Source: Parasedimentitalea marina
Lineage (GTDB): Bacteria > Pseudomonadota > Alphaproteobacteria > Rhodobacterales > Rhodobacteraceae
Assembly (NCBI RefSeq): GCF_004006175.1
Contig: NZ_CP033219.1
Span: 2,666,001 to 2,730,000 of the forward strand
Reading direction: 5' to 3'
DNA length: 64,000 nucleotides
Shown: piece by piece, positions 12,765-47,380 of the stretch
How the letters are laid out: each line of letters starts with the position of its first letter
Position numbering within the stretch: the first letter of the stretch is position 1
Position numbers and translations under genes: made by a program
The notes under the pieces: generated by a model
Seen by the model: only the letters and a program-made list of their open reading frames with translations
Database searches by the model: none
Told to the model about the DNA's origin: nothing

Positions 12765-13850
12765 GGCACAGATCCGCGACAGATCGGCCCTGTCCGCCAT
12801 GGAAGCGGTCAACGCCGATTGCCACAAGATCGACGTCTTTGTTGAGTGGCCAGACGGCACCATAAACCGGCCACAGATTGTTGCGTTTCAGGACTTATAC
12901 TCCGACAAGATCCTGTCCTGGCGGGTGGACCATGACCCAAACAAAGTCATGGTAATGGCCGCGTTTGGGGAAATGGTGGAACACTGGGGCATTCCACGGC
13001 GCTGCCTGTTCGACAACGGGCGCGAATTTGCCAACAATTGGATGACAGCGGGTGCGCCAACCCGTTTTCAGTTCAAGATCTGCAAAGACGATCCAAAAGG
13101 CGTCTTGCCACTGTTAGGCATTCAGATGCACTGGGCCACTCCGGCGCATGGCCAGGCTAAACCGATTGAACGGGCGTTTCGCGATCTTGCCAGCGACGTA
13201 GCCAAGGACCCGCGCTTTGCCGGGGCCTATGTTGGCAACCGCCCGGACGCCAAACCAGAGAATTATGGCAGCCGCGCCATCAAAGCGGCTGAGTTTATTG
13301 AAGTTCTGGAAGAGGGCATCCTTGAACACAACGCCCGCCCTGGTCGGCGGTCAGGCAATGCCAAGGGCAGGTCCTTTGATGAGATCTTCGCCAAGAGCTA
13401 TGAAAACGCCCCGATTCAGAAGGCCACAGAAGAGCAACGCCGCCTTTGGCTCATGGGGCAAGCCAGCGCCAAGCTGCACAAAAACAGCGGACAACTGACC
13501 TTCCACGGCAACGTCTATCACTGCGATTGGATGAGTCAGGACGCTGGGCGCAAGATCATTGTCCGGTATGACCCTGAGGATCTGCACAGCGGCGTCCACA
13601 TATATGGACCAGATGGCGACTATCTTGGCTTTGCTGAATGCCAGCAAAAGATCGGTTTCTTTGATCTGGAGGGCGCACGATCCACTGCCAGCCGGCGTAG
13701 CAAAATCGTCAAAGCTGAGAAGGCCCTGCGCGACCTGCACCGGCCCATACCAGTTGACCAGATTGTCGCCGATATGAACAAGACCCGCACCACAACCAGC
13801 CCCCTGATGGAGGCCAAAGTGGTGACGGGGATGTTCCCGACCGCGCCATC
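12765..13850 (+). pseudogene. truncated MuA-type transposase
   Basis: Compared with the 709-residue copy at 39860, this fragment lacks roughly the first 250 residues (the end- and enhancer-binding domains) and the last 100. The catalytic core is present, with the DDE residues in NADCHK, LFDNGRE and KPIERAF. About nine residues in ten match the other copy. Near 13849 the frame jumps into the DUF3164 gene out of register and soon stops at 13917. An ATG at 12799 is available but is only internal to the gene. It is inactive as a transposase, though a truncated core protein might be made. Confidence 0.9.
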
Positions 13851-14072
13851 GTCACTAACGCCTTCAACACAGACAAAGAAGGTCAGATCAATCGCGCTGA
13901 GATATTCAAGCTCCTGAGCCTGGAGATCCAGGACACCCGCTGGCAGCGCGCTATGCGGGCCATCCGAGACGCCATGCGTGTGGTTGGCAAAGCAACTTAT
14001 GTGCGCTGCTACCAACGCCCCACACCGGATGCCAAGTGGCAGCACATCACCATTGATCTAGCCAAAGCCTGA
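13849..14072 (+). pseudogene. DUF3164-family gene, 3' fragment
   Basis: The frame reads AIVTNAFNTDKEGQINRAEI and continues to a C-terminus ending ITIDLAKA at 14070. This matches the last third of the gene at 44555. Its 5' two-thirds were lost in the deletion that fused it to muA. It is useful as a comparison: it has CAA where copy 2 has the amber codon TAG, and so shows the natural C-terminus of the family. Confidence 0.85.
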
Positions 14073-14085
14073 AGGGGAGCTCAAA

Positions 14086-14337
14086 ATGCCGATGACAAAC
14101 GAAGAATTTCGCGCGCGCCTGCATTCCAGTTTTAGCGCCTCTACCACCGCCCAGGCCCGCGCCATGATGACATTGTTCGGGCGACTTACCCTGCTCATCA
14201 GTGACGCCAAGAGCGCTGGCATCACCGCTGCCGACATGAACCTGATCATCCAGGAAGAAATGGCGACTGCTGACCGCCGTCTGGCCGGGTTTGCGGATCG
14301 GTTTCCTCAGGATGCCAACCTGGACATGGAGGCCTGA
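14086..14337 (+). CDS. small phage protein upstream of gemA (copy 1)
   Basis: This 83-residue protein has no recognised domain. It is preceded by AAGGGGAG and lies 1 bp before the gemA start. Its counterpart in copy 2 (45234-45494) has the same length class and shared positions (ARAxMT..GRLT, ATADRRLA against ARSDRRLA) but is clearly diverged, unlike the mor and C genes downstream. Position and size match the small unknown genes of Mu-like early operons. Confidence 0.65.
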   Translation: MPMTNEEFRARLHSSFSASTTAQARAMMTLFGRLTLLISDAKSAGITAADMNLIIQEEMATADRRLAGFADRFPQDANLDMEA

Positions 14338-14338
14338 C

Positions 14339-14794
14339 ATGAGCCGCGCCCTGCAACAAAAGATCCACATCGGTTGCCGCGAACTTGGCCTGGACGGTGA
14401 CGCGCGCCGTGCCTTGCAGCTTGTAGTGACCGGTAAGAAATCCATGAAAGACATAAGCGACGCCGACCTTTTTAAGGTGCTTAAACGGCTAAAAGCCGAC
14501 GGCTTTAAAACCTCTTCAAAGGGTAAGAAAAAGCATAAACCAGCCCCGCGCCCGGATCTGCGCCTGGTGCATGTGGTTTGGACCAAGCTCGGCGACGCAG
14601 GCGAGCTGCGTGACCCCAGCCGCGCCGGGCTGAATAAATTCATTCGCGACCAGTTTGGCAACGCCTGGGGCTCGGTTCCTGCCGACATCGACATGTTGCG
14701 CAATCACAAACAAATAAATGCCGTGATCCAAGCCCTGAAGGCCTGGGGAGCGCGCGCTGGCATCGGTTTTGACTGGGCGGAGCATCGCAAGTGA
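14339..14794 (+). CDS. GemA-like (Mu gp16 family) regulatory protein, copy 1
   Basis: This 151-residue early protein matches the gp16/GemA family of Mu-like phages, whose Mu member affects host supercoiling and gene expression. Visible features are the N-terminal RALQQKIHIGCRELGLDGDARR, a KSMKD turn, the basic SSKGKKKHKPAPRPDLRL segment, and RDPSRAGLNKFIR...WGSVPADIDMLR near the C-terminus. About three-quarters of residues match copy 2. ATG 14339 follows the previous stop directly, and its stop overlaps the next GTG by 4 bp. Confidence 0.82.
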   Translation: MSRALQQKIHIGCRELGLDGDARRALQLVVTGKKSMKDISDADLFKVLKRLKADGFKTSSKGKKKHKPAPRPDLRLVHVVWTKLGDAGELRDPSRAGLNKFIRDQFGNAWGSVPADIDMLRNHKQINAVIQALKAWGARAGIGFDWAEHRK

Positions 14795-15186
14795 GCGATG
14801 GCTTCAAGCCATATCTACCCGGCGTTCTGGCGCTGATCGCTGATGAGATCAGCGTCGACCTTGCCGTACGCCTGGGCAAACAGCGCGGCGGTCGCGAGGT
14901 CTATCTCGCCAAGGACCCTGCCCCCGGTTGTTCCCTTTCGAAACTTGTCGGGCAAGCCAATGCCCAAAAGCTCTACAAGCTGCTCGGCAGCGGCAAGATT
15001 CTGGTGCCTGCCGGAAACATCAGCGGGCAAACCGGACGGCGCCAACGGATCGCCATGCTGCTGGACCAAGGCTTGAGCCATTCCCTCATTGCCGCAGAGG
15101 TCGACGTTCATATCCGGACTGTGGAACGCATGTCAGCAGAACTGCGCTGCCCTAAGGATCAGCGCCAGTCTGATCTTTTCCTCTAA
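14791..15186 (+). CDS. Mor-type middle transcription activator, copy 1
   Basis: This is a 131-residue Mor/C family activator. The N-terminal dimerisation part has DLAVRLGKQRGGREVYLAKDP. A C-terminal helix-turn-helix follows (RIAMLLDQGLSHSLIAAEVDVHIRTVERM). In Mu, Mor turns on the middle promoter, which drives C. Here it lies after gemA and before a 394-bp gap and a second Mor/C-like gene, exactly the Mu order, which supports the assignment. The start is GTG overlapping the gemA stop. Confidence 0.8.
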   Translation: MSDGFKPYLPGVLALIADEISVDLAVRLGKQRGGREVYLAKDPAPGCSLSKLVGQANAQKLYKLLGSGKILVPAGNISGQTGRRQRIAMLLDQGLSHSLIAAEVDVHIRTVERMSAELRCPKDQRQSDLFL

Positions 15187-15580
15187 ATCCTGATCGACCT
15201 AACTGGTGATCGCGCCGGATGATCTCCGCCGTCTGCAGGCCTGTTGAGAAAATCCACCCTCCCACACTCTGGTTTTCATTCCTAAGCAGGAAAAAGGCAG
15301 TATTTTGCCTATTCATTCCGTTTCACCCCAGCAAGCAGAGAACTGCAGGCCGGACCTGTTCTGAGGATCGCCGTTAAATACCACTTAAACGGGACAGCAT
15401 CGCGGTTGTGATAATTTCCGCCCCGAAGTAGCGTTCAGGCGGAAAGTGACCTCAGCGGCCCGCAAATCGAGCCCCTGAGATCTCGCCAAATCTCCGACAA
15501 AATTTGCCCAGCGCGTTTTGGCTTTGGACCCGACACGTGACGGGGCGGTACACACCGACGAGTGCCGGCATCAAGATCCT
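15187..15580 (+). promoter_or_regulatory. mor-to-C intergenic region, candidate middle promoter
   Basis: This 394-bp gap is almost identical to the one in copy 2 (46339-46732), although non-coding DNA normally diverges faster than genes. CTGCAGGCC occurs twice, near 15233 and 15343, each followed by CCTGTT or a close match, which could be activator-binding sites. By analogy with Mu it should contain the Mor-dependent promoter for the downstream C-like gene. No experimental signal can be assigned from sequence alone. Confidence 0.45.
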
Positions 15581-16000
15581 ATGCCAGACACACACGCCCC
15601 CCTGAACCTACTAACCTGTGATGAAATGATTGATCTCGGGATGACCGTCCCTGAGATCCTCGAAGAGCTGGAAGACAGCCTTGGTCCGGACGCCGTCTGG
15701 AAGTTGACAGGTCTCTTTGGCGGTACTGAAACCAACATTCCGCATCAGCACAGCTTGGCGCGCTCAATCCTAACCGAGCAACTTGGTGATCAGATCAGCT
15801 ATTGGCTGTTCATGACCTATGGTCCGGGGCGGATCCAAATCCCGCTTGGGCCGCATTCCAGCCGAGCCCTTAAAATGGCCGCCTTCCGAGCCGCGCTTCT
15901 CACCCGCCAGCCCCACCGCAAAATTTCCCGCTCCCTGGGCTGTCACGTTCGCACAGTTGAACGCGCCAAGCGCGAACTGGTCACAGCTGGGTTTCTCTAG
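15581..16000 (+). CDS. C-like late activator (Mor/C family), copy 1
   Basis: This 139-residue protein has LGDQISYWLFMTYGPGRIQIP in the middle, the GGREVYL-equivalent of Mor/C proteins. A C-terminal helix-turn-helix follows (AAFRAALLTRQPHRKISRSLGCHVRTVERAKREL). Position after mor matches Mu C, which activates late head, tail and lysis genes; no such genes follow. ATG 15581 is preferred over the upstream in-frame start at 15518 because the family begins near MPDTHAP in both copies. Confidence 0.75.
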   Translation: MPDTHAPLNLLTCDEMIDLGMTVPEILEELEDSLGPDAVWKLTGLFGGTETNIPHQHSLARSILTEQLGDQISYWLFMTYGPGRIQIPLGPHSSRALKMAAFRAALLTRQPHRKISRSLGCHVRTVERAKRELVTAGFL

Positions 16001-16049
16001 AGCGGTTGGGGTTTGCCCCAGACACGACTTTTCGCTGGCGCTACATGTA

Positions 16050-16200
16050 ACGAACGACCTAAAGCCGCCATCTATGCCAAACCCGTCTAACGGCTGCATC
16101 CAGCCCTTCTACGACATTCGTGTTGGGTGCAGCATGACGCGGTATATCGAGCAAAAAGGGCGGATTTCGGACTTTCGCTGCGCGTCGCTCGAATACCTGT
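16050..16200 (+). repeat. dispersed intergenic repeat at the Mu right boundary
   Basis: It contains AAAGCCGCCATCTATGCCAA, CCGTCTAACGGC, CAGCCCTTCTACGACATTCG, GCAGCATGACGCGGTATAT and an AAAGGGCGG block. The first blocks are shared with copy 2 (47210-47262). The two sequences then diverge, so the Mu homology ends inside a chromosomal repeat. The rest of 16200-16636 holds only the palindrome described next. Confidence 0.8.
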
Positions 16201-16270
16201 TAAGCGGACTAAGTATGAATTCGCTGAAAGTGTACGTGTACCAATGGCTGCTTTTTAGGCGTCGTGGAAC

Positions 16271-18512: not shown

Positions 18513-18636
18513 TGTGTGGTCCAGTCATTGAGAGGCGCCGCAATGCGAGCAAAGAAGAATAGGTTCAATCCAGTCTATCTATTTCCCCACCAATCACCTA
18601 CGAAACAAATAGAACGGTTTGTTACATAGGTGGAAC

Positions 18637-22924: not shown

Positions 22925-23660
22925 AACTATCGCTCCTCGAAACGCTGAATTTATCAACAGGCCGTTTAGCAGTTCCACCACGCGAGATTAGGAAATAGCA
23001 ATTGGCGACCAGAGGATCATTACGTAGCTCAGTATCTTCGTAAGTCTAACGTAAAATCGGACCTACCCATCGAACCAAACATCGCGAAATGGGTTCTTGG
23101 ATTTCTTTCAAGCCAATGAACTAAAAGGTCAGATCAGTTCAATGATCGGAAAGGGCTTTAGTCGTCTGTGTCACAAGATTTCTTGAATACCTTCAAAGGG
23201 ACACACTACGCCGTCGTCGTATTGCCCATTCGGTCGTTTGTGGCTCAATTTGTCACTGCGTTGCAGCGATTTTTTCTTCCGGTAGTCGTGTCCAAATTAT
23301 TTTTTTGAAGGTCGACCTCCGGAGGCCATCACAAGGAAAAATATGAACCCCACTCTTGTAGCAACAGGGAAGTCCGCTTTTGGGTGAAGCGGTCATTCAC
23401 CGCAATCTCAATTAGGATCAGCTATGGGCCGATCGCACCCAGGCTAGCATATAGTGATCCCGACTTTGCAAAGTCCGCTCCCTGCGCATTGCTGCCATTG
23501 GTGCTGGTTACGTCTAATGGCCGGTCCCAGCCCTTCTACGACATTCACGCTGAGTGCAGCATGACGCGGTATATGGGGAACTAAGTGCGGCGAGCCACCA
23601 TTCGCTGCGACAGGTGCCAAAATCTGCTGAGCGGGGGCGAGTTCAATGCAGTCTTGAAAT
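22925..23660 (+). repeat. gene-free spacer with dispersed repeat (about 23455-23625)
   Basis: No gene is supported. The repeat part reads ACTTTGCAAAGTCCGCTCC, TGCGCATTGCTGCCATTGG, CGTCTAATGGCC, CCCTTCTACGACATTCACG, GCAGCATGACGCGGTATAT, ending with CATTCGCTGCGAC. This is one of the most complete examples in the window. A CCTCCGGAGG palindrome near 23315 has no following T run. Confidence 0.75.
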
Positions 23661-23662
23661 GT

Positions 23663-24157
23663 TTAGGGACGCGGAAAATAGAGATCATGTAAGACCCCAA
23701 GCATGAGAGCAACACCAAGGATGAACCCGCCCAAAATGATCGGGAGGAAGACACCGCTGAGAAAACTCATGCCCTCAATGCGTGTTCGAAGATTAGTTTT
23801 CCGAACCTGAAACACAGGGGCTTTAGGTTTGAGAGCTAGTGGATGTAAATGGTGCGCCAAGCAGTGGGCGGTTGTCGTGAACAGTTGATAAACGATAAGG
23901 CTACCCACGATAGTATAGGTCCAAAATCCGGCGTCATGGGTTTTGATGACGAAGATATATATGATGAATAAAAGGGCCAATACGCCGACTGTTAACGTGT
24001 AACCAATGTGGGACAACGGAATTATTTCAACGCTGTTGTCACAAGTGTTACATTGATATCTGATCACTGAATTGTAGCGATCCCATGTTTTCGATACAGC
24101 CTTCATTCTAGCGGTGTCACTACAGGTACACTGTCTATCTTGGCAGTTGGGATGCAT
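23663..24157 (-). CDS. small membrane protein with N-terminal cysteine cluster
   Basis: Unrecognised protein of 164 residues. The N-terminus is rich in cysteine (CQDRQCTC, then CNTC), suggesting a small zinc-ribbon-like knuckle. Two hydrophobic segments follow (about 60-80 and 85-105), then a histidine-rich HCLAHHLHPL loop and a C-terminal span. ATG 24157 has AAGGA 7 bases upstream; an earlier in-frame ATG at 24184 lies inside the upstream gene. It follows the next listed gene by 16 bp and is probably co-transcribed with it. Confidence 0.65.
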   Translation of the reverse strand: MHPNCQDRQCTCSDTARMKAVSKTWDRYNSVIRYQCNTCDNSVEIIPLSHIGYTLTVGVLALLFIIYIFVIKTHDAGFWTYTIVGSLIVYQLFTTTAHCLAHHLHPLALKPKAPVFQVRKTNLRTRIEGMSFLSGVFLPIILGGFILGVALMLGVLHDLYFPRP

Positions 24158-32318: not shown

Positions 32319-32365
32319 ACGTCGACTATCATAGTGAAAGGTTTCGGTCCTGGGTCTGAAAAGGG

Positions 32366-33802: not shown

Positions 33803-33918
33803 TTGCTACCTTTGCAAAGTTTGGCCCGTTTTCCGACAGCGGCCTTTCGTGTCGCGTGCGGCGAAAGCCGGGTGAGAGCCCTTTCTGACAGATGCTGCGG
33901 AGCTCACGAATGTCTGCT

Positions 33919-36021: not shown

Positions 36022-36024
36022 AAG

Positions 36025-36774: not shown

Positions 36775-37010
36775 CTAAGCCGACATTGGCGCCGGTGCAG
36801 CGAATTGGTGCTTTGTCCGCAGTTTGCCAGTTCATGGGCGGCGCAGCGAACGGCGGCATCCCGCCTTTCTTGCTTCAGACGTCCCCCGTGCTGCATTGCG
36901 CACCAATGTCTTAGAAGGGCTGGAAGCAGCCGTTAGACGGGCTTGGCGCGAACGGCGGATTTGGGCCAAGTGCTCCAGTTGGACTGACAACAGCGGCCTA
37001 TATTGTCCGG
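36775..37010 (-). repeat. dispersed intergenic repeat beside the Mu left end
   Basis: Inverted family blocks: AAGCCGACATTGGCGCCGG, GAACGGCGGCATCCCGCC, TGCTGCATTGCGCACC, AGAAGGGCTGGAAGCAGCCG, TTAGACGGGCTTGGC. It directly precedes the Mu-like element, so both ends of copy 2 lie in this repeat. Confidence 0.75.
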
Positions 37011-37243
37011 CACCCTGGTCGCTCGTGACAATCGCAGTGAATGGCTGCTAAGCATTTCCTATAACTGCGGAGCAATCTGGCGGCTGCAGGAAACCGCCTC
37101 CAAGAACTAATAAGAACACTTTCAAAAATCGCTCGGTAAAAATCGTTAGCGTTACATTTTACACCAATCACATCGCCCATATTTTTAGGCCCCTCGAAAT
37201 GCATAGAGGTAGGGACATTTCAATAAAATTAGGCAATAAGAAT

Positions 37244-37393
37244 ATGAACGAACAACCAATAAACGCCATGGATTTGCTAAATATCGTAGCATTGGTCGAA
37301 GCTTTGGAAAAGACACAGCCGGGCTGGGGCATTGAACAATTTCGCAAGGCAGTAGCCCGAGTAAAACTACTCGGGGCGAGCGCTCTGCAATAG
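37244..37393 (+). CDS. possible small left-end phage protein
   Basis: This 49-residue frame (MNEQPINAMDLLNIVALVEA...) ends 27 bp inside the convergent repressor gene. It is helical and acidic-basic mixed, with no motif. The ribosome-binding site is weak. It could be a real small phage gene or chance. Confidence 0.3.
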   Translation: MNEQPINAMDLLNIVALVEALEKTQPGWGIEQFRKAVARVKLLGASALQ

Positions 37394-37702
37394 GCGACTG
37401 ACCAAGCCGGCTTCTCTCTCAGATAGAGTGGACGCTGCTTCAACGACTTCCCGCATTTCCTTGTTGGAGGTCGTACTCGAAAATAGGAAGACCGGATCAA
37501 TATTTGCAATTCTGCAAATCGTCAGAATTTTATCGACTGTAGGATTGATCCGCCCGTTCAGCATCCTACTGACATATTCCCCGTTAAAACCAGCCTCCAC
37601 TGACAGCGCCTTGTAGCTAAGGCGCCGGTCATCAATCGCTTGTTTCAAGCGTTCTCGCCAAGCATCTTCTGGCTGTGCATCTATCTTGGGGTCACTTTTC
37701 AT
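37367..37702 (-). CDS. phage repressor (XRE helix-turn-helix)
   Basis: This 111-residue protein has an XRE helix-turn-helix (LSYKALSVEAGFNGEYVSRMLNGRINPTVDKILTICRIANI). It is transcribed away from the early operon, as the Mu c repressor is. ATG 37702 is chosen because the longer in-frame extension (to 37846) would cover the operator region and overlap the ner promoter. The C-terminal tail is short, with no peptidase domain, so induction would not be by LexA-like self-cleavage. Confidence 0.8.
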   Translation of the reverse strand: MKSDPKIDAQPEDAWRERLKQAIDDRRLSYKALSVEAGFNGEYVSRMLNGRINPTVDKILTICRIANIDPVFLFSSTTSNKEMREVVEAASTLSEREAGLVSRLLQSARPE

Positions 37703-37863
37703 CTGGCCATTGTGGCATGGAAATATAGTTCCCGCAAATGGAAATAAAGATCCTGACAGCACCGAGCTGAATACATCAAGTGGTTTTATATGTCTAGTTT
37801 CTTGAATTAACTGTTGTCTTGTTAGACTTATATGCATATCCTCCATACCTGAATGGAGGACTG
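37703..37863. promoter_or_regulatory. lysis-lysogeny switch region with operators and hairpin
   Basis: Between the divergent repressor and Ner-like genes, ATGGAAATA occurs at 37717-37725 and 37738-37746, exactly 21 bp (two turns) apart, suiting a dimeric or cooperatively bound repressor. A perfect inverted repeat TCCTCCAT-n6-ATGGAGGA lies at 37839-37860; its right arm contains the GGAGGA ribosome-binding site of the next gene (ATG 37864). It could act as an operator or as an RNA hairpin masking that site. Confidence 0.6.
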
Positions 37864-38220
37864 ATGACAGGCAAGACCAACATTAGACAATTAAGCGGCC
37901 TACAGTTTGCCGCCTTCTTGAAAACGGAGATGGCACACCGCAATGCTGGCCTAGGTAGGCTCACCTATGAAAAACTGGGCAGAGCTTGCGGCGTTTCGGG
38001 AAAACGCCTTAGGCAACTTGCCGACGAAAAAAACGCAGGCAATCCTTCGGCACTTACAATCAGACTCGTACTTTTCACATTGGGTTATGAGGTTGACAGC
38101 CCAGAACACGACGTGGTTCCGCACCTTCAAGACAAGGGTGCGTATTCCGAGGGTATCCATGGAAAAACTCGCCAAAGATCGGGGGCCTCCAACGCACCGC
38201 CGACTCAGAGGGTTTCATGA
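37864..38220 (+). CDS. Ner-like early phage DNA-binding protein
   Basis: This 118-residue protein has a helix-turn-helix-like core (LTYEKLGRACGVSGKRLRQLADEKNAGNPSALTIRLVLFTLGYEV). It is the first rightward gene opposite the repressor, the Ner position in Mu, where Ner dampens early transcription. GGAGGA precedes ATG 37864, and an upstream in-frame ATG at 37819 lies before the hairpin and is rejected. The stop overlaps the next ATG. Confidence 0.65.
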   Translation: MTGKTNIRQLSGLQFAAFLKTEMAHRNAGLGRLTYEKLGRACGVSGKRLRQLADEKNAGNPSALTIRLVLFTLGYEVDSPEHDVVPHLQDKGAYSEGIHGKTRQRSGASNAPPTQRVS

Positions 38221-38495
38221 CCTTCACCCACACTCACTCCCGATCCAACCACGCCCCTGCTCGGGCCCGGTTGGACAACTCTCCCGGTGGCCATGGGGAT
38301 GCGCCACTGGGGGCTTTTTATTCACGCCCAACACTCGCGGAGACGGGCCCCAACCATTGCACATTACTGCAGAGACGCTGGGGCCGACGCGCTTGGCTTG
38401 GCACCGCCCTTTTCTGGCTCGGCGAGATCCTCGGCGCGGCCTCACTTTTCATAATCATGATTATTGGACTTTTTGCAGGAGACATTTTTCGATGA
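38217..38495 (+). CDS. small phage membrane protein
   Basis: This 92-residue protein has a hydrophilic, histidine- and proline-rich N-terminal half and one C-terminal membrane span (LFIIMIIGLFAGDIF) preceded by basic residues. Its start overlaps the Ner-like stop and its stop overlaps the next ATG. No family is recognised. Confidence 0.6.
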   Translation: MTFTHTHSRSNHAPARARLDNSPGGHGDAPLGAFYSRPTLAETGPNHCTLLQRRWGRRAWLGTALFWLGEILGAASLFIIMIIGLFAGDIFR

Positions 38496-38923
38496 GTTTT
38501 GAACAGCAATGTCAGGCCATGGCGACAGCGCCAATGACCGCGCCAGAACGCCTATCCGGCTTGATAGAAGCCGCTGCCAGGCACACACGCCTCGCGGCCC
38601 TCAGAGCGGATCTGACAGAGCAACTGACCTCAGTGAAATCCGGGTCTGCATCCGCAGAGAGTATTGCCCACGATCTCGACGACACAGTCGAAGCAGAATG
38701 CCTGGCACAGGAAAAGGTGACCGCTTGGGCCACAGCATTATTAAACGACCGAACGCTTGCCGACTGCCAGCGTTTCCTCGCTAACCGCGACCAGTTCCAG
38801 AAGGCTGTTGAGCGGGAAAAACTGGCGCGTACACGACCAAAAGATCGCACTAGGTTCACTGCGCTCTGGAACCGTCTTGTCGGCAATCGCAAGGCCGCCC
38901 AGGCCCCCTCCCCGACCCGCTAA
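38492..38923 (+). CDS. phage early protein, helical
   Basis: This 143-residue protein is mostly alpha-helical with coiled-coil character (LSGLIEAAARHTRLAALRADLTEQL, DQFQKAVEREKLARTRPKDR). It is not recognised. ATG 38492 overlaps the preceding stop; the frame is open far upstream, but that part is out of context with the two earlier genes. Confidence 0.6.
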   Translation: MSFEQQCQAMATAPMTAPERLSGLIEAAARHTRLAALRADLTEQLTSVKSGSASAESIAHDLDDTVEAECLAQEKVTAWATALLNDRTLADCQRFLANRDQFQKAVEREKLARTRPKDRTRFTALWNRLVGNRKAAQAPSPTR

Positions 38924-38946
38924 ATTTTCATTTAGGAGCATCCCCC

Positions 38947-39855
38947 ATGCGTCCCCCACGCCTGATTGAAGTTAAAGACATACCACTTGAAGAGATTGAC
39001 ACATCGAACCGGTTGCGCCCGGTGTCTGAAACGGCAGTTAAAAGCCTGTCACACTCGATTGAGACCCAAGGTCTGATGTCCGAGATCCAAGTCCGCAAAG
39101 TCAAGAAAACCGGCAAGCTGCGGCTGATTGCCGGCGGTCACCGGATGGCAGCGTTTCGCGCCCTGGGCCGCACTGAAATTCCCGCCAAGGTCTGGGACTG
39201 TACAGATGACTGGGCAATGCTGGCAGAGATTGACGATAACCTTGCCCATGCCGAGCTTAACACTTTGGATTTGGCAGTATTCCTTGCCCGTCGCAAAGAA
39301 GTATATGAGCGGGCCTATCCTGAGACAAAAGCAGCAACCGGGGCAGACTTGGTCGCAAAACGTTGGGATACGGCGGACAACATGTCCGTCGTATCATTTG
39401 TAACCGCAACAGCCGACAAAATGGGCGTCGACGAGCGCACAATTCGACGGCTTGTTGCTGCGGGCCGGTCCCTTGGCCCCCGCGAGATCCAAGAGCTACG
39501 GGACGCCCCAAAGAGGGTGTCCCTTTCCGACCTGCAGACAATTGCCAAGTGCGGATCAACAACGGATCGGTATGACATTTGCCGCGCCCTGGGCGATGGT
39601 ACCGCCAAGTCCGCCAAGGAGGTTTTGGCCCGTAAGAAAGCCCCCGGCGCTACGGTAAAAGACCCCGTTGAGAAAGCCCATGGCAAGATCAGTGACGCCT
39701 ATACACGGGCACCAAAAGAAGCCCGCCGGCGGTTTGCCGATGAACACCGCGACGAGTTGCTGGAGCTATTAGGCGCAGACGTCCCAACTGTGAGCGACGA
39801 GACCCCCGAAACAGACGCCGAAATCCTCCCATTCAACTCAAAACGGGCGGGTTGA
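38947..39855 (+). CDS. ParB/Spo0J-like N-terminal domain protein
   Basis: This 302-residue protein has the ParB N-terminal fold: the EVKDIPLEEIDTSNRLRP opening, LSHSIETQGLMSEIQVRK, and LIAGGHRMAAFRALG, the GxxR-type nucleotide loop. A helix-turn-helix (MGVDERTIRRLVAAG) follows, then an acidic C-terminus. Some Mu-like phages of Rhodobacterales carry ParB-like proteins before the transposase. The role could be DNA binding at the ends or host interaction. TTTAGGAGC lies 7 bases before ATG. Confidence 0.8.
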   Translation: MRPPRLIEVKDIPLEEIDTSNRLRPVSETAVKSLSHSIETQGLMSEIQVRKVKKTGKLRLIAGGHRMAAFRALGRTEIPAKVWDCTDDWAMLAEIDDNLAHAELNTLDLAVFLARRKEVYERAYPETKAATGADLVAKRWDTADNMSVVSFVTATADKMGVDERTIRRLVAAGRSLGPREIQELRDAPKRVSLSDLQTIAKCGSTTDRYDICRALGDGTAKSAKEVLARKKAPGATVKDPVEKAHGKISDAYTRAPKEARRRFADEHRDELLELLGADVPTVSDETPETDAEILPFNSKRAG

Positions 39856-39859
39856 TCCG

Positions 39860-41989
39860 ATGGGCATTATTGAACCCAAACAAATCTGGTGGACGGCAGA
39901 GGAGCTGGCCAAGGCTGGTCTGCCGGAATTGCCGGGCAGCAAGCGCGGCATAAACTCGATTGCCGAGCGTCAGGAATGGCGGTCCATTGAAGGTTGCGCC
40001 AAGCGCAAAGTCGGGCGCGGCGGTGGCTGGATGTATCATTGGTCTCTGTTACCATTGGCGGCGCGGCTCAAGCTGTTGAAAGAGGCCGCCTCGATCCCCG
40101 ACGCGCGCCCGGATCGGGGGGTTGCCTGGGCAACGTTTGATCGCTTGCCCGAGAGCGTCAAGGCAAAGGCCAAATCGCGGCTGGCCACCCTTCAAATTGT
40201 CAACACTCTGCACTTTACCGGCGTGACCCATGTTTACGCGGTTGCCGAGGCCGCGCGCCAGTGTGGATCGTCGCCTCGCAGTCTCTACAACTGGCTTGAG
40301 TTGATCGAAGGCATCCCCCCAGAGGACCACCTGGCCTATCTGGTGCCGCGCAATCGCCTAGCGATACGAAAGCCCATCAAAGCACCCAGCAACCAAGCGT
40401 TTATGGACTATTTGAAGAGCCTTTACTTGCGCCTTGAGCAGCCGACTTATGCCCAGTGCTATCGGCTGGCGTGCAAGAAGGCCGGGCAAGAAGCCTGGGA
40501 GGTATTGGCCAGTAAGACGGCACAGCGCCGTTTGAACGCAGAAGTGCCCCGTGTCTCACAGGTCTTTTGGCGCGAAGGCGTCAACGGTTTGATGCGCTGT
40601 TACCCAGCACAGATCCGCGACAGATCGGCCTTGACCGCCCTAGAAGCCGTCAACGCTGACTGCCACAAGATCGACGTCTTTGTTGAGTGGCCAGACGGCA
40701 CCATAAACCGGCCGCAGATTGTGGCGTTTCAGGACTTATACTCAGGCAAGATCCTGTCCTGGCGGGTGGATCATGATCCAAACAAAGTCATGGTTATGGC
40801 TGCCTTTGGGGAAATGGTTGAGAACTGGGGTATTCCACGGCGCTGCCTTTTCGACAATGGACGGGAGTTTGCCAACAAGTGGATGACGGCGGGTGCGCCA
40901 ACCCGGTTCCGGTTCAAGATCTGTGATGACGATCCTAAAGGCGTCTTGCCGCTCTTGGGCATTCAGATGCACTGGGCAACCCCGGCCCATGGCCAGGCTA
41001 AGCCAATTGAGCGGGCGTTTCGCGATCTTGCCAGCGACGTGGCCAAAGACCCGCGCTTTGCCGGGGCCTATGTCGGCAACCGCCCGGGCGCCAAGCCTGA
41101 GAACTACATGAGCCGCGCCATAAAAGCGGCTGAGTTTATAGATGCTCTTGAAGGTGGCATTCTTGAACACAACGCCCGCCCCGGTCGGAAATCCCCCACC
41201 GCCAAAGGCCGCTCATTTGATGAGACCTTTGAAGAGAGCTATGCGATTGCGCCCATTCAGAAGGCTACTGAGGAACAACGCCGCCTTTGGATGATGGGGC
41301 AAGCCAGCGCCAAGCTGCACAAAAACAGCGGCCAACTGACCTTCCACGGCAACGTCTATCACTGCGATTGGATGAGCCAGGACGCCGGTCGCAAGATCAT
41401 TGTCAGGTTTAACCCCGAGGATCTGCACAGCGGCGTCCACATATATGGCCCCGAGGGCGACTATCTTGGCTTTGCCGAGTGCCAGCAAAAGGTCGGCTTC
41501 TTTGATCTTGAAGGCGCGCGGTCCACCGCCCGCCGCCGTCGCCAGATTGTCAAAGCTGAGAAGGCCCTGCGCGATCTGCACCGACCAGTATCAATCGACC
41601 AAATTGCGGCCGATATGAACAAGACCCGCGCCAAGACCAGCCCCCTGATGGAAGCCAAAGTGGTGACAGGGATGTTCCCAAAGCAGCCTCAGGTGAAGAC
41701 GTTTCAGGATCACACGAACCGAGACGCGACGGACGCACGGGACGCTTTGATCCTGGAATATTCCACCAAGAAACCGGAGCGCGCCTCAGAAGCGTTTGAA
41801 GTCGCAAGAACCCCGGATGGCCGGTTCAAACAGGTTCAGGACATTCAAAAGCGCCAGAAAGCCGGAACGCCAATTGGCACCCGCGAAGCGGCCTGGTTGG
41901 AAGGCTTCCTGAACCACCCCGAATATGAGGGCCTGTTGGCCGTCAAGCAGAGCATTGGCCGAAACACCGGAAACAAAACTGGCCGGTAG
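39860..41989 (+). CDS. MuA-type DDE transposase
   Basis: This 709-residue phage transposase joins element ends to target DNA. The N-terminal part carries helix-turn-helix domains for end and enhancer binding (WWTAEELAKAGLPELPGS). The RNase H-like core has the catalytic triad Asp267 (NADCHK), Asp332 (LFDNGRE) and Glu384 (KPIERAF), matching D269, D336 and E392 of Mu. The beta-barrel and MuB-contact tail follow. The last codons look damaged: a +1 frame from 41985 reads GSFKKKRRLDDPQSDDKQ to a stop at 42041, probably the original C-terminus. The loss of about 18 residues could weaken MuB or ClpX contact. Confidence 0.93.
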   Translation: MGIIEPKQIWWTAEELAKAGLPELPGSKRGINSIAERQEWRSIEGCAKRKVGRGGGWMYHWSLLPLAARLKLLKEAASIPDARPDRGVAWATFDRLPESVKAKAKSRLATLQIVNTLHFTGVTHVYAVAEAARQCGSSPRSLYNWLELIEGIPPEDHLAYLVPRNRLAIRKPIKAPSNQAFMDYLKSLYLRLEQPTYAQCYRLACKKAGQEAWEVLASKTAQRRLNAEVPRVSQVFWREGVNGLMRCYPAQIRDRSALTALEAVNADCHKIDVFVEWPDGTINRPQIVAFQDLYSGKILSWRVDHDPNKVMVMAAFGEMVENWGIPRRCLFDNGREFANKWMTAGAPTRFRFKICDDDPKGVLPLLGIQMHWATPAHGQAKPIERAFRDLASDVAKDPRFAGAYVGNRPGAKPENYMSRAIKAAEFIDALEGGILEHNARPGRKSPTAKGRSFDETFEESYAIAPIQKATEEQRRLWMMGQASAKLHKNSGQLTFHGNVYHCDWMSQDAGRKIIVRFNPEDLHSGVHIYGPEGDYLGFAECQQKVGFFDLEGARSTARRRRQIVKAEKALRDLHRPVSIDQIAADMNKTRAKTSPLMEAKVVTGMFPKQPQVKTFQDHTNRDATDARDALILEYSTKKPERASEAFEVARTPDGRFKQVQDIQKRQKAGTPIGTREAAWLEGFLNHPEYEGLLAVKQSIGRNTGNKTGR

Positions 41990-42054
41990 CTTCAAAAAGA
42001 AACGCCGCCTGGATGACCCCCAAAGCGACGACAAGCAGTGAACGAGGAGTGAGC

Positions 42055-42801
42055 ATGTCATACCTATCAGAAATCGGCAACGCCGTCAGGCCGCTGACCA
42101 ACGTGGCCAAAATGGCTGGGCTGCTCAAAGAGCTGCAGAGTCGCACCTGGGGCGCACCAGGCTTTGGGGTGTTTCATGGGCCGCCCGGATACGGAAAGAC
42201 CTTTGGGGCCATTTTCTGCGCTGATCAATTGGATGCTATCCATTTGGCGGTCCAAAGCGAATGGAGCAAAAAATTCTTCCTGCAGCAGCTGTTGCGCGAG
42301 CTTGGCCGCCCGATCAAAGGGACGGTGCCAGAGCTGGTCCAGATGGCAAATGAAGCGCTGGCGATAGATGCGCGACCGCTGATCATTGATGAGGCCGATT
42401 ACCTGATCTCAAAGGGGATTTTGAATATCGTCCGTGACCTGCACGACGGGTCACAAATTCCCATCTTGCTGATCGGCATGGAAAACTTCCCCCAGCTTCT
42501 GAACAGACACGATCAATTCAAAAGCCGGGTGCTGTCCTGGTCCGAGGCCCTGCCCGCCGACATGACTGACGCCCGCCACCTGGCGGATATGGTTTCCCCT
42601 CCGGGCATCACCCTTCAGGACGATCTGTTGGCGATCATTCGAGAGCGTCACACCGGCAACGCGCGTTGGATCGTTAAAGAGGTCTCCCACGTCTGCAGCG
42701 AGGCCAAGAAACTGGGCTTGGTCGATATTTCCAAAGCCACGTGGGGTGGTTTGGACTTTATGCGCGACACCGCGCCGGTTCCGAGGGGTGGCTTGAAGTG
42801 A
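42055..42801 (+). CDS. MuB-type AAA+ transposition ATPase
   Basis: This 248-residue protein delivers target DNA to MuA. It shows Walker A GPPGYGKTFG and Walker B PLIIDEADYL, and sensor-like LLIGMENFPQLL. It is shorter than Mu B (312) because it lacks an N-terminal domain, as in several Mu-like phages. ATG 42055 has GAGGAG 7 bases upstream; the upstream frame at 42013 lies in the muA tail. The stop overlaps the next GTG. Confidence 0.9.
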   Translation: MSYLSEIGNAVRPLTNVAKMAGLLKELQSRTWGAPGFGVFHGPPGYGKTFGAIFCADQLDAIHLAVQSEWSKKFFLQQLLRELGRPIKGTVPELVQMANEALAIDARPLIIDEADYLISKGILNIVRDLHDGSQIPILLIGMENFPQLLNRHDQFKSRVLSWSEALPADMTDARHLADMVSPPGITLQDDLLAIIRERHTGNARWIVKEVSHVCSEAKKLGLVDISKATWGGLDFMRDTAPVPRGGLK

Positions 42802-43676
42802 TCGAAGTGCATGTCAGACACGGCGTTGAGCAGGAATTGCTGGACTTCATGCGCTCACAGTTGCGGTTTACCGAGCTGGATGTCGCCACCCACTGCTCAG
42901 CCAAAGACACTGTGCGCGACCGGTTCCTGCAGATGATGCGAGAGATTGGCGCTATCGTTCCTTGTGGCAGTGACGGTCGCCAGCACTTCCTGACCACCTG
43001 GGGTGAAGCTGAAGCCGCGAACATCGAAGCTCTGGCAAAAGCTGGGTCTCTGTCCGACAAGACGCCCCATGCCCGGCTGCTCGACCTGATAGAGATCGCA
43101 AGCACCGAGGGCGTGCACGTCGATATTCCAACCTGGACACCACGCAGCCCAGAGGAAGCGAAGATCTGGCGTTATATCGCCAAGCGCCCTTACTTCACCG
43201 CTGCGGATGTTGAAGCGGTTTTCCCACTGGACCCCATCATGCGGACGGGCTTCCTGCGCAGGCTGAAGGCCGCAAAGGTTATTCGGTTTTGGGGCCGTGA
43301 CGGCGCCAAGGTCTATTATACAACGCAATCAGCCAGGGACGGCCGGAATACGGCGCGCGACCTGCGCGCCACAGTCGAGGGTGCGATCTGGACCGCTATT
43401 CGGATCAAGAAACGGTTCCGGCCCAATGACCTGCTCACGGCCCTGCGCCAGTCTCGCCAGGACATCACGATGGGTGATGTAACACGATACTGCCGCACGC
43501 TAACGCTGGCTGGCTTTATCAAGCCGCCAAAGCCAACGGCCAGGATCACTGGCGACACCCCGTTGCTGCTGATCAACAACGCCGGTCCCCTGCCCCCACA
43601 AAAGCGCAGCATGACGGTGATCGTCGATCCGAACGAAGACAAAATCGTCTACTCACCGATGGGACAATTCCAATGA
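42798..43676 (+). CDS. phage protein with winged-helix repeats
   Basis: This 292-residue protein probably starts at GTG 42798 (overlapping the MuB stop). It contains at least three segments that look like winged helices: RDRFLQMMREIGAIVPCGSDGRQHFLTTWG, TGFLRRLKAAKVIRFWGRDGAKVYYTT, and MGDVTRYCRTLTLAGFIKPP. The function is unknown; a DNA-binding early protein is likely. It overlaps the next gene by 4 bp. Confidence 0.65.
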   Translation: MIEVHVRHGVEQELLDFMRSQLRFTELDVATHCSAKDTVRDRFLQMMREIGAIVPCGSDGRQHFLTTWGEAEAANIEALAKAGSLSDKTPHARLLDLIEIASTEGVHVDIPTWTPRSPEEAKIWRYIAKRPYFTAADVEAVFPLDPIMRTGFLRRLKAAKVIRFWGRDGAKVYYTTQSARDGRNTARDLRATVEGAIWTAIRIKKRFRPNDLLTALRQSRQDITMGDVTRYCRTLTLAGFIKPPKPTARITGDTPLLLINNAGPLPPQKRSMTVIVDPNEDKIVYSPMGQFQ

Positions 43677-44062
43677 GCAACCGCTTGATCATAGCGCAAG
43701 ACGGCTGGGGCGAGATCATTCCTGATTGGATCGAGGTGCTCATCCGCGAATGTGACCAGACCTCCCAAAACCGCGTGGCCAAGCGGCTGGACCTCAGCGC
43801 CGCCGTCGTTAGCCAGTCCATTCGCAACAGCTATGCCGGCAACCTGTCGCGCATCGAAAGCACTGTCCGCGATACCTACATGAACGCCCCGGTGGACTGC
43901 CCGGCGCTTGGCGGCAAAGTCGAAAGCCCAACCTGTCTGAAGTGGCGTCGCCGCGCCGACAAGTTGGAATCGTCAAGCCCAATGCGGGTGATGATGTTCA
44001 ACGCCTGTCGCGCCTGCCCGCGCTATCGCAGCCAAGCCGAGGGAGACGACGATGATGTTTAA
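43673..44062 (+). CDS. phage helix-turn-helix protein with cysteine-rich tail
   Basis: This 129-residue protein has an N-terminal helix-turn-helix (NRVAKRLDLSAAVVSQSIRNSYAGN). Cysteines in the C-terminal half (VDCPALGG, PTCLKWRR, NACRACPRY) could bind zinc. The gene overlaps both neighbours. Similar small HTH proteins occur in Mu-like phages, but the role is not known. Confidence 0.65.
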   Translation: MSNRLIIAQDGWGEIIPDWIEVLIRECDQTSQNRVAKRLDLSAAVVSQSIRNSYAGNLSRIESTVRDTYMNAPVDCPALGGKVESPTCLKWRRRADKLESSSPMRVMMFNACRACPRYRSQAEGDDDDV

Positions 44063-44558
44063 AGGCAATCAAGATCCGCAGAAGCTGCGCGATGTTCTGG
44101 GCGCGAACCTCAGACGGCTGACCAAGGGGTTAAAAATCACTCAAGTGGCCCGTGATCTGGACATACACCGCACCCAGTTCAACCGCTACCTCCGCGGCGA
44201 AAGTTTCCCAGGTCCTGAGTTGCTGGCACGGATTTGTCGTCACTTCAAAGTGGACGCCAACATCATGATCCGGCCGATTGATGAGACGCCAGAGACCCCC
44301 GAACGCATCGCCCTACGCCATGCCATTCAGGCAAGTCGGTTTGATTGTGCCGGAGATTTACCGCTGACGCTGACCACTTTGCGCGCGTTTCGCTCAACGG
44401 AAACCGCCCGTTTCATTCTGGCCCAAAGTGCTGGCACGGTAAACGGCTGCGAGTTCGACCTGCTGGCTGAGGAAGCCGGGTTCTCTGGCCTCCCCCAGAA
44501 CCCCGCCTTGATCCTTGAGGCCGCATCCAAGCCACCCCAAAACGAGGTAGTACAATGA
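44052..44558 (+). CDS. phage XRE-family DNA-binding protein
   Basis: This 168-residue protein has an N-terminal XRE domain (LRRLTKGLKITQVARDLDIHRTQFNRYLRGESFPGPELLARICRHFKV). The alpha/beta tail of about 85 residues has no recognised motif. It may modulate early transcription alongside the repressor and the Ner-like protein. It overlaps the preceding gene by 11 bp and the next by 4 bp. Confidence 0.75.
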   Translation: MMFKGNQDPQKLRDVLGANLRRLTKGLKITQVARDLDIHRTQFNRYLRGESFPGPELLARICRHFKVDANIMIRPIDETPETPERIALRHAIQASRFDCAGDLPLTLTTLRAFRSTETARFILAQSAGTVNGCEFDLLAEEAGFSGLPQNPALILEAASKPPQNEVVQ

Positions 44559-45163
44559 CCAATCCCCCCTCCAACCAATTCGAGCCTGCGCCGATCCCAG
44601 ACGGTCGCGTCACTGCAAACGGCAATACCTACATGACGGATGCCAAGGGCGGCCTGATACCGATAGACCTGGTCAAAGCTCAGGATCAACTCCAGGACGA
44701 AACAGTGCGCAAGATAGTTAGTCACGGGCTAGCCCTCAGTGCCCAGACCTCCCGGTTCAAAGAGCATGTCTTTGACGACATCGGCTCCTTTGAAGCCATC
44801 CTGGAACAGGAATACGGATCCACCATCGGCGGCGCGAAGGGCAACAAGACGCTGATGAGCTATGACGGATTGTTCAAAGTTCAGGTTGCCGTTGCCGACA
44901 AGTTTGACTTTGGCGCGGAGCTGCAGGTCGCCAAGGGCATTGTGGATGAATGCCTGAATGAGTGGTCTGCCGATGCGCCGGTCGAATTGCGGGCCATCGT
45001 GACCAACGCCTTCAACACCGACAAAGAAGGTCAGATCAATCGGGCTGAGATCTTCAAGTTGTTGCACCTGGAGATCCAGGATGAGCGCTGGCAGCGCGCC
45101 ATGACAGCCATTCGCGATGCCATGCGAGTGGTTGGCACCGCCACTTATGTGCGCTGCTACTAG
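44555..45163 (+). CDS. DUF3164-family phage protein, cut by an amber codon
   Basis: This 202-residue product matches the DUF3164 proteins of Mu-like early operons (YMTDAKGGLIPIDLVKAQDQLQDE, GAKGNKTLMSYDGLFKVQVAV). The function is not established. The TAG at 45161-45163 interrupts a frame that otherwise continues 18 codons to 45220 (DAKWQHITIDLAKA). Copy 1 has CAA at this site. Loss is confined to the end, so activity may survive. Confidence 0.82.
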   Translation: MTNPPSNQFEPAPIPDGRVTANGNTYMTDAKGGLIPIDLVKAQDQLQDETVRKIVSHGLALSAQTSRFKEHVFDDIGSFEAILEQEYGSTIGGAKGNKTLMSYDGLFKVQVAVADKFDFGAELQVAKGIVDECLNEWSADAPVELRAIVTNAFNTDKEGQINRAEIFKLLHLEIQDERWQRAMTAIRDAMRVVGTATYVRCY

Positions 45164-45233
45164 CGCCCGGCTCCTGATGCCAAGTGGCAGCACATCACCA
45201 TTGATCTAGCCAAAGCCTGAAGGGGGAATTCCT

Positions 45234-45494
45234 GTGCCCAAGTCTAAGGAAAAATACCGCCTAAAGCTGCGTCAAAATCTCAGCGCCTACGCGACCAGCC
45301 AGACCCGCGCGTCGATGACCCTGGGAGGTCGGCTGACAGTTCTCAGGCTACAGGCCACTGTTGCTGGCCTGACTGACGTCGACCTTGCAGACATTACCGC
45401 CGAGGAAACCGCACGGTCGGATCGTCGATTGGCGCGGATCACGGCTTTGCACCCTGTTGGACCCGTCGTTCATGTCGAGGACATCCAATCATGA
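45234..45494 (+). CDS. small phage protein upstream of gemA (copy 2)
   Basis: This 86-residue protein starts at GTG 45234 after AGGGGGAAT. It has no recognised domain and is mostly helical (LKLRQNLSAYATSQTRASMT, DLADITAEETARSDRRLAR). It is a diverged counterpart of 14086-14337. Its stop overlaps the gemA ATG. Confidence 0.65.
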   Translation: MPKSKEKYRLKLRQNLSAYATSQTRASMTLGGRLTVLRLQATVAGLTDVDLADITAEETARSDRRLARITALHPVGPVVHVEDIQS

Positions 45495-45946
45495 CCCGCG
45501 CCCTGCAACAAAAGATCCACGTCGGTTGCCGCCAGCTTGGTTTGGACGGTGACGCCCGCCGCGCTCTGCAGCTCGCTGTAACCGGCAAGCATTCCATGAA
45601 GGACATGGACCACGCCGAACTCTTGATGCTGATCAAACGGCTTAATAGCGATGGCTTTAAACCCTCTTCAAAGGGTCCCAAAAAACACAAAGCCGCCTCA
45701 CGCCCAGATTTGCGCCTAGTCCACGTTCTTTGGCGCAAGCTTGGCGAGGCCGGCGCGTTGCGCGATCCCAGCCGCGCCGGGCTGAACAAGTTCATTCGCG
45801 CGCGGTTCGGCAACACCTGGGGCTCGGTTCCGGCTGATGTCGACATGCTCCGCCAGTGGTCCCAGATCAATGCCGTCATCCAGGCGCTCAAAAATTGGGG
45901 CGCTCGGGCTGACATCGACTTTGACTGGGCGGAGCATCGCAAGTGA
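45491..45946 (+). CDS. GemA-like (Mu gp16 family) regulatory protein, copy 2
   Basis: This 151-residue protein has RALQQKIHVGCRQLGLDGDARR, a KHSMKDM turn, basic SSKGPKKHKAASRPDLRL, and WGSVPADVDMLR. Differences from copy 1 are concentrated in residues 30-60 and near the C-terminus. It overlaps the mor GTG by 4 bp. Confidence 0.83.
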   Translation: MTRALQQKIHVGCRQLGLDGDARRALQLAVTGKHSMKDMDHAELLMLIKRLNSDGFKPSSKGPKKHKAASRPDLRLVHVLWRKLGEAGALRDPSRAGLNKFIRARFGNTWGSVPADVDMLRQWSQINAVIQALKNWGARADIDFDWAEHRK

Positions 45947-46338
45947 GCAATGGCTTCAAGCCATATCTACCCGGCGTTCTGGCGCTGATCGCTGACGAAA
46001 TCAGCGTCGACCTTGCGGTACGCCTGGCCAAACAGCGCGGCGGCCGCGAGATCTATATCGCCAAGGACCCTGCCCCCGGTTGCTCTCTCTCAAAAATCGT
46101 CGGGCAAGCCAATGCGCAAAAGCTCTACAAACTGCTCGGCAGCGGCAAGATGTTGGTGCCCGCCGGAAACATCTGCGGTCAAACCGGACGCCGCCAGCGG
46201 ATCGCCATGCTGCTGGACCAGGGCTTGAGCCATTCGATCATTGCCGCAGAGGTCGACGTTCATATCCGGACTGTGGAACGCATGTCAGCAGAACTGCGCT
46301 GCGCTAAGGATCAGCGCCAGTCCGATCTATTCCTCTAA
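45943..46338 (+). CDS. Mor-type middle transcription activator, copy 2
   Basis: This 131-residue protein differs from copy 1 at only about ten positions. The GGREIYIAKDPAPG loop and the C-terminal helix-turn-helix are intact. It should activate the promoter in the following 394-bp gap. GTG start, coupled to gemA. Confidence 0.8.
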   Translation: MSNGFKPYLPGVLALIADEISVDLAVRLAKQRGGREIYIAKDPAPGCSLSKIVGQANAQKLYKLLGSGKMLVPAGNICGQTGRRQRIAMLLDQGLSHSIIAAEVDVHIRTVERMSAELRCAKDQRQSDLFL

Positions 46339-46732
46339 ATCCTGATCGATCTAACTGGTGATCGCGCCGGATGATCTCCGTCGTCTGCAGGCCTGTTGAG
46401 AAAATCCACCCTCCCGCACTCTGGTTTTCATTCCTAAGCAGGAAAAAGGCAGTATTTTGCCTATTCAATCCGTTTCACCCCAGCAAGCAGAGAACTGCAG
46501 GCCGGACCTGTTCTGAGGATCGCCGTTAAATACCACTTAAACGGGGCAGCATCGCGGTTGTGATAATTTCCGCCCCGGAGTAGCGTTCAGGCGGAAAGTG
46601 ACCTCAGCGGCCCGCATATCGAGCCCCTGAGATCTCGCCAAATCTCCGACAAAATTTGCCCACCGCGTTTTGGCTTTGGACCCGACACGTGACGGGGCGG
46701 TACGCACCGACGAGTGTCGGCATCAAGATCCT
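46339..46732 (+). promoter_or_regulatory. mor-to-C intergenic region, copy 2
   Basis: Nearly base-for-base identical to 15187-15580, with only a handful of substitutions. It keeps the doubled CTGCAGGCC elements near 46385 and 46495 and should contain the middle promoter. Confidence 0.45.
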
Positions 46733-47152
46733 ATGCCAGACACACACGCCCCCCCGAACCTACTAACCTGTGATGAAATGATTGATCTCGGGATGACCGT
46801 CCCTGAGATCCTCGAAGAGCTGGAAGACAGCCTTGGTCCGGACGCCGTCTGGAAGCTCACAGGCCTCTTTGGCGGCACTGAAACCAACATCCCACATCAG
46901 CACAGCCTGGCGCGCTCAATCCTAACCGAGCAGCTTGGTGATCAGATCAGCCATTGGCTGTTCAAGACCTATGGTCCGGGGCGGATCCAAATCCCGCTTG
47001 GGCCGCATTCCAGCCGAGCCCTTAAAATGGCCGCCTTCCGAGCCGCGCTTCTCACCCGCCAGCCCCACCGCAAAATTGCTCGTTCCCTGGGTTGCCACGT
47101 TCGTACAGTTGAGCGGGCCAAGCGCGAACTGGTAGCAGCTGGGTTTATCTAG
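46733..47152 (+). CDS. C-like late activator (Mor/C family), copy 2
   Basis: This 139-residue protein has LGDQISHWLFKTYGPGRIQIP and the helix-turn-helix TRQPHRKIARSLGCHVRTVERAKREL. It is intact, yet no late genes follow for it to activate. A GGGG-TTTG-CCCC mini-hairpin lies just after the stop in both copies, without a T run. Confidence 0.75.
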   Translation: MPDTHAPPNLLTCDEMIDLGMTVPEILEELEDSLGPDAVWKLTGLFGGTETNIPHQHSLARSILTEQLGDQISHWLFKTYGPGRIQIPLGPHSSRALKMAAFRAALLTRQPHRKIARSLGCHVRTVERAKRELVAAGFI

Positions 47153-47199
47153 AGCGGTTGGGGTTTGCCCCAGACACGACCTTTCGCTGGCGCTACATG

Positions 47200-47380
47200 T
47201 AACGAACGACCCAAAGCCGCCATCTATGCCAAACCCGTCTAACGGCTGCATCCAGCCCTTTTAAGACTTTGGTGCGCGGTGCAGCATCCGACACTAAGGG
47301 CGGACAGCGACCCCTCGCTGCGAGATCCGCTCCAACGACGGCTATGCTCAGTAAGTGTGCTTTGCAAAGTCACGAGTGTT
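47200..47380 (+). repeat. dispersed intergenic repeat at the Mu right boundary, copy 2
   Basis: AAAGCCGCCATCTATGCCAA and CCGTCTAACGGC are shared with 16060-16100. The sequence then follows a different branch of the family (GTGCGCGGTGCAGCATCC, CGGCTATGCTCAGTAAG, GCTTTGCAAAGTCACG). The switch point is near 47262. Confidence 0.75.

What the first reader, a model, noticed from the sequence alone, without database searches (positions are those of the whole stretch)
12765..47210. Two Mu-like elements consisting only of the early region, ending at the same base
Seen: both copies run gemA-mor-C and then stop, with no lysis, head or tail gene, and pass into the same dispersed repeat at about 16110 and 47262. 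Known: Mu order is early genes, gemA, mor, C, then late genes. Inference: this may be a stable late-gene-less transposing element (a satellite that borrows another phage's late functions through its own C activator), or a prophage truncated once and then copied as a chromosomal segment. Mu inserts almost randomly, so identical flanks favour segmental copying unless the repeat blocks are part of the element.
Basis: partly seen in the sequence, partly recalled or inferred. Interest (0 to 1): 0.8.

Follow-up and report, generated by a model that had tools for sequence, protein, structure and literature searches.

The report
Mu-like satellite without late genes
The window holds one whole and one broken copy of a 10-kb jumping element related to phage Mu that has no genes for making virus particles, yet keeps a switch gene behind the same DNA signal that some particle-making Mu-like phages of these bacteria carry before their lysis and head genes, which suggests that it lives off such phages.

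Summary
E2 (window ~36,980-47,170) is a whole early region of a Mu-type element (repressor, ParB-like, MuA, MuB, DUF3164, GemA, Mor, C) that stops just after C. E1 (12,760-16,000) is a remnant, starting inside MuA and internally deleted. Twelve C-bearing loci (two partial) in 7 genomes of two genera were found; none has an intact late gene after C. C and Mor are under purifying selection (median dN/dS 0.17, 0.11). C starts 35 bp after a 17-bp dyad, CCCGWCANNYGWCRGGG. In 11 whole genomes it has 15 exact sites: before C in 10 elements, three before the endolysin gene or gene I of two prophages, two elsewhere. Two phages not used to define it also have it before endolysin, and before I where sequence is held. 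Satellite C and Mor and these phages' Mors share the recognition helix [ILV]RTVER; seven phages with other helices lack the dyad. Best reading: a natural transposing satellite whose C is wired to a helper's late operators, like P4 delta with P2 ogr. Packaging, the sign of C's action and exact ends are unproven, and only two of the seven genomes hold a dyad-bearing prophage.

The parts
36976..36993 (.). approximate left end of E2
   Evidence: left-most sequence shared with two other left ends in G404:C199; exact end base not determined
37367..37846 (-). repressor-like HTH gene (the part scanned starts at 37735)
   Evidence: PHROG 3 / 2439 repressor matches; E2, E3, E4 and E5 have diverged ones
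37864..38220 (+). divergent small ORF at the ner position
38947..39855 (+). ParB-like protein of Mu-like roseophages
   Evidence: PF02195 2e-9, PHROG 3264 8e-70
39860..41989 (+). MuA transposase, open throughout
   Evidence: PF02914 3e-48; aligned with Mu transposase 4fcy, the acidic residues at the three catalytic positions (recalled positions) are kept
42052..42801 (+). MuB-like transposition ATPase
   Evidence: PF13401, PHROG 296
43673..44062 (+). small early gene
   Evidence: PHROG 2119 1.6e-32
44052..44558 (+). HTH regulator
   Evidence: PF13560
44555..45163 (+). DUF3164 early protein
   Evidence: PF11363 1e-64
45491..45946 (+). GemA
   Evidence: PF06252 1e-20
45943..46338 (+). Mor-type activator, helix HIRTVER
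   Evidence: PHROG 836 3e-20; 62% and 69% identical to Mor of E4 and of the P. arcticus late-gene-bearing prophage
46516..46626 (+). conserved leader block upstream of C (core 46526-46545)
   Evidence: conserved in the satellites; homologous block upstream of gene I in E4 (profile E 6e-23) and in the P. arcticus prophage (1e-6)
46681..46697 (+). 17-bp dyad, candidate Mor/C operator, 35 bp before C
46733..47152 (+). C: second late-activator paralogue, helix HVRTVER, last gene of the element
   Evidence: PHROG 836 3e-19; dN/dS median 0.17; ATG and TAG checked
47153..47170 (+). conserved right boundary
12760..13838 (+). E1: 3' part of MuA
   Evidence: 87% to 40601-41679
13842..14070 (+). E1: 3' end of DUF3164 next to the internal deletion
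   Evidence: 86% to 44990 on
14291..14794 (+). E1 GemA
14791..15186 (+). E1 Mor, open throughout
   Evidence: 93% aa to E2
15529..15545 (+). E1 dyad before C
15581..16000 (+). E1 C, open throughout
   Evidence: 96% aa to E2

Best explanation
E2 belongs to a lineage of natural Mu-type satellites. Shown: it carries a whole Mu early region and no virion gene; the lineage recurs at different sites in two genera; its last gene C is a second Mor/C-family activator kept under purifying selection; C sits behind a leader (block plus dyad) equivalent to the one before gene I of some late-gene-bearing phages; the dyad marks the endolysin and gene-I leaders of phages whose Mor has the same recognition helix as satellite Mor and C. 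Inferred: the element moves by its own MuA/MuB; when a helper of the E4 type is induced or infects, Mor proteins (the helper's and its own) switch on C, and C acts in trans at the helper's endolysin and I operators, so that the satellite times or tunes helper late expression and is packaged in helper particles, as laboratory mini-Mu is by Mu (recalled). It works like P4 delta on P2 late genes, but on a Mu-type chassis.
For: No late genes around satellites (exceptions told in the full report). Recurrence at different flanks. Purifying selection: C, 36 of 36 pairs at dN/dS 0.28 or less; Mor, 36 of 36 (8 satellites and E4) at 0.26 or less. Leader block before gene I in E4 and, looked for afterwards, in the P. 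arcticus prophage. Dyad: 15 exact sites in 11 genomes, 13 in satellites or the two prophages E4 and G429full; the 5 sites of G000 are its three C leaders and two leaders of E4. Two phages not used to define the dyad: L055 has it before the endolysin gene, G086 before endolysin and before I. E4 endolysin is GH108, gene I is Mu-like I protein PF10123, followed by gpT. Shared helix. Satellite E3 and prophage E4 share 4.56 kb at 98.6% identity, so they exchange DNA. P4 delta and ogr act on both elements' late genes: PMC8628076 (passages). Mu C binds a dyad in Plys, PI, PP and Pmom: PMC4287176 (passages).
Confidence: 0.55

Rival explanations
1. Interference cassette: mor-C is a phage-triggered brake. 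An incoming or induced helper's Mor turns on C through the dyad, and C competes at the helper's endolysin and I operators and spoils its late phase; remnants are kept because the host gains.
For: Mor and C stay open in remnants that lost MuA wholly or in part (E1, L050), and C pairs have low dN/dS. Satellites of other kinds lower helper capsid expression (PMC7567579, passages).
Against: The sign of C's action is untested. E1 and L050 could simply be young remnants; in R24 C itself is broken.
Confidence: 0.2
2. Decaying prophages: the elements are Mu-like prophages that lost their late genes and persist passively; the shared end reflects one old deletion spread by recombination.
For: Several copies are damaged; the region of copy G429a is listed as an 'incomplete' prophage in the 2013 genome paper of P. 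arcticus (PMC3910698, passages). Early genes are mixed with those of late-gene-bearing phages in trees.
Against: Purifying selection on C and Mor across two genera; in P14, G429a and G429b each of seven genes checked is open over 97-100% of the query; no late-gene-bearing phage with a close relative of this C was found (one search saw 394 genomes, searches find close relatives only).
Confidence: 0.2
3. Segmental copying: E1 and E2 are two copies of one chromosomal block and not separate insertions.
For: They share ~135 bp of right flank; the last 236 bp aligned are 91.5% identical.
Confidence: 0.05

Closest known systems
P4-like satellites of P2 (delta / ogr)
   Same: satellite carries a homologue of the helper's late activator; delta and ogr promote late genes of both elements (PMC8628076, passages)
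   Different: P4-like elements are defined there by integrase, alpha, Psu, Sid, delta and others; none of these is seen here. Here the mobility genes are MuA/MuB and the activator is of the Mor/C family
Mini-Mu elements (laboratory; recalled)
   Same: Mu ends plus A and B without late genes, packaged with helper Mu
   Different: engineered; these are natural and recurrent, with their own repressor, Mor and C
Mu-like roseophages vB_PeaS-P1 and vB_RhkS_P1
   Same: early genes ParB-like, MuA, MuB, DUF3164, GemA in the same order
   Different: they carry late genes; vB_PeaS-P1 and vB_ThpS-P1 are reported to lack Mor (PMC5488378, passages), though a Mor-family protein aligns in vB_PeaS-P1 here; no dyad in the 27 kb of each scanned
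PLE satellites of Vibrio
   Same: lower helper capsid transcription (PMC7567579, passages)
   Different: no Mu-type genes (recalled)
xre-luxR-luxI modules of Roseobacter prophages (PMC13345283, 2026 preprint, passages)
   Different: the passages seen do not mention satellites or a shared late operator ('satellite' 0 times)

Membership tests
Mu-type transposable element | MuA-type DDE transposase plus MuB | tested here: met
   both open in E2, P14, G429a, G429b
Mu-type transposable element | defined ends with 5-bp target duplication | tested here: inconclusive
   6 elements scanned, no convincing duplication; left end placed only to ~20 bp
Complete Mu-like phage | late genes (lysis, terminase, portal, capsid, tail) after the activator | tested here: not met
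Phage satellite | lacks virion genes yet is a distinct, recurring lineage | tested here: met
   12 loci, 7 genomes; C and Mor under selection
Phage satellite | is mobilised in helper particles | not testable with these tools
   needs induction and particle sequencing
Phage satellite | genes that act on a helper | tested here: inconclusive
   shared dyad and recognition helix; action itself untested
P4-like satellite | integrase, alpha, Psu, Sid, delta | tested here: not met
   none among the Pfam/PHROG matches of the E2 proteins scanned
Mor/C activator family | Mor domain with C-terminal HTH | tested here: met
   PHROG 836 for both; homologue P0016 (57% identical to C) bears PF08765. PF08765 did not match E2 Mor or C at 1e-3 and the genome search with it gave 0, although E4 Mor matches it at 1.6e-6

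The most novel reading that the evidence does not exclude
The first natural satellites built on a Mu-type transposon: self-mobile early regions whose only late-phase gene, C, senses and resets the late switch of Mu-like phages through an operator found almost nowhere else in the genome, and which are kept as a phage-triggered hijack or brake even after they lose their transposase.
Probability: 0.37. Interest if true: 0.9.

Novelty: new variant of a known kind. Interest (0 to 1): 0.75.

Why it matters
Known tailed-phage satellites use integrases or plasmid replication (recalled). Six paper searches listed no paper that, by title and start of abstract, treats a satellite of a transposable phage; listed were 20 of 56, 20 of 43, 15 of 20, 1 of 1, 1 of 1 and 2 of 2, from open-licence papers only. 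If true, trans-control of a helper's late genes arose again on a Mu chassis, a class of 'incomplete Mu-like prophages' is explained, and a 17-bp operator lets satellites and their helpers be found from sequence alone.

Tried and rejected
RNA structure in the mor-C leader: 4 of 4 sequences fold no better than shuffles (z -0.48 to 1.13) and no Rfam match. Coding block between mor and C: the frame is closed by stops in several copies (read by eye). Target duplications: 6 elements scanned, only scattered pairs. Empty site for E3 through its right neighbour: no close orthologue in the 7 other genomes of the genus. Empty site for E2 in G400: the FecC locus matches from window 47,255 on, but an IS110-like transposase (by eye) lies at that point, so it is not a clean empty site. 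More copies in viral contigs: C gave one distant Mor, Mor none. Structure of C: four tries, machine busy. Solved-structure searches with Mor and C: nothing useful. Helper co-occurrence: 4 of 7 C-bearing genomes have a Mu portal against 50 of 394 in the family, but three of the four are one genus and two of the four lack the dyad outside satellites, so I do not lean on it. An apparent counter-example, G086 (right helix, no dyad in the first 1.5 kb), was resolved only after fetching 20 kb; 13 other distant Mor loci in 11 genomes, for which about 3 kb each was held, showed no site with at most one mismatch but are for that reason not counted as negatives. Odds were lowered a little (0.60 to 0.55; novel case 0.40 to 0.37; decay rival 0.15 to 0.20) when rechecking showed that only two genomes hold a dyad-bearing prophage.

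Full report
What is there. The window is C1:2,666,001-2,730,000 of a 5.08-Mb genome in the genus of G304, which is Zongyanglinia (now Parasedimentitalea) huanghaiensis by contig and record names. E2 runs from about 36,980 to about 47,170: a repressor-like gene, small ORFs, ParB-like, MuA, MuB, small early genes, DUF3164, GemA, Mor and C. MuA keeps the catalytic acidic positions when aligned with Mu transposase 4fcy (positions recalled). E1 (12,760-16,000) is a remnant that starts inside MuA and lacks the stretch between 41,679 and 44,990 of E2.

Late-gene-bearing prophages. E4 (C1 ~1,714.6-1,678.5 kb) and E5 (~1,758-1,717 kb) have late genes after the activator, but their MuA is not in one open frame. 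E3 and E4 are 98.6% identical over 4,557 bp. In trees of MuA (12 rows; 7 left out for lack of an open frame over 80% of the query) and GemA (19 rows) satellites and late-gene-bearing phages are mixed; well-supported branches force at least 2 and 4 label changes. The Mor tree (11 rows, 8 left out) is unresolved. So the early region is exchanged, while the right cassette mor-leader-C marks the satellites.

Selection. dN/dS has median 0.17 (largest 0.28) over 36 pairs of nine satellite C genes, and 0.11 (largest 0.26) over 36 pairs of eight satellite Mor genes and E4's; R24, whose C is frame-broken, was not included. Several dS values are near saturation. Mor and C are open in E1 and L050, which have lost MuA in part or wholly.

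How it most likely works. In Mu, Mor binds a dyad in Pm and C a related dyad in Plys, PI, PP and Pmom (PMC4287176, passages). In the E4 type one Mor appears to serve endolysin and I directly. In the satellite the gene behind the I-type leader is C instead of the head genes. C can therefore be switched on with the helper's late genes and, having the same helix, can return to the helper's operators. That is the logic of P4 delta and P2 ogr (PMC8628076, passages). Whether C raises or lowers helper expression, and whether helper particles carry the element, is inference.

Print. Regions 3 (1,804,950-1,823,500, 'incomplete', hits to Mu-like phages) and 7 (2,247,246-2,280,565, 'intact', Mu-like) of P. 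arcticus in PMC3910698 (passages) hold copy G429a and the late-gene-bearing prophage; copy G429b is not among the eight regions shown there. Paper searches and their limits are told under Why it matters.

Noticed in passing
[not shown]
   Followed up: partly
window 241-1727 and 32363-33850: Two 1.49-kb stretches, 98% identical, with a Mor-family gene that seems cut before its HTH (PHROG 836, 6e-12) and an end like that of E4/E5; a part is 90% alike at C1:1641908-1642824.
   Followed up: partly
window, e.g. 16034-16240, 23461-23670, 36792-36990, 47186-47389, 51061-51269: Dispersed intergenic repeat, 35 merged copies in the 264 kb scanned; it lies at flanks of several Mu-like elements.
   Followed up: partly
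G000:C1:1657900-1759000: Three Mu-like elements (E3, E4, E5) in the same orientation within about 100 kb.
   Followed up: no
L130, L132, L131, L128 just after mor: Phages with other activator helices have other inverted repeats at the same place, as if operator and helix change together.
   Followed up: partly
G000:C1:1739978-1739997 (E5 portal gene), G400:C1:4434710 and 4479181: The 20-base leader core occurs with 2-3 mismatches inside portal sequence; unexplained.
   Followed up: no
L088:5134-6171: IS110-like transposase (by eye) at a dispersed repeat in the FecC locus of G400, where the match to E2's right flank begins.
   Followed up: no
L054:9261-10077: A repressor-like gene and a small ORF joined directly to the last 77 bp of C, as if an internal deletion had kept both ends; a MAG with masked bases.
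   Followed up: partly
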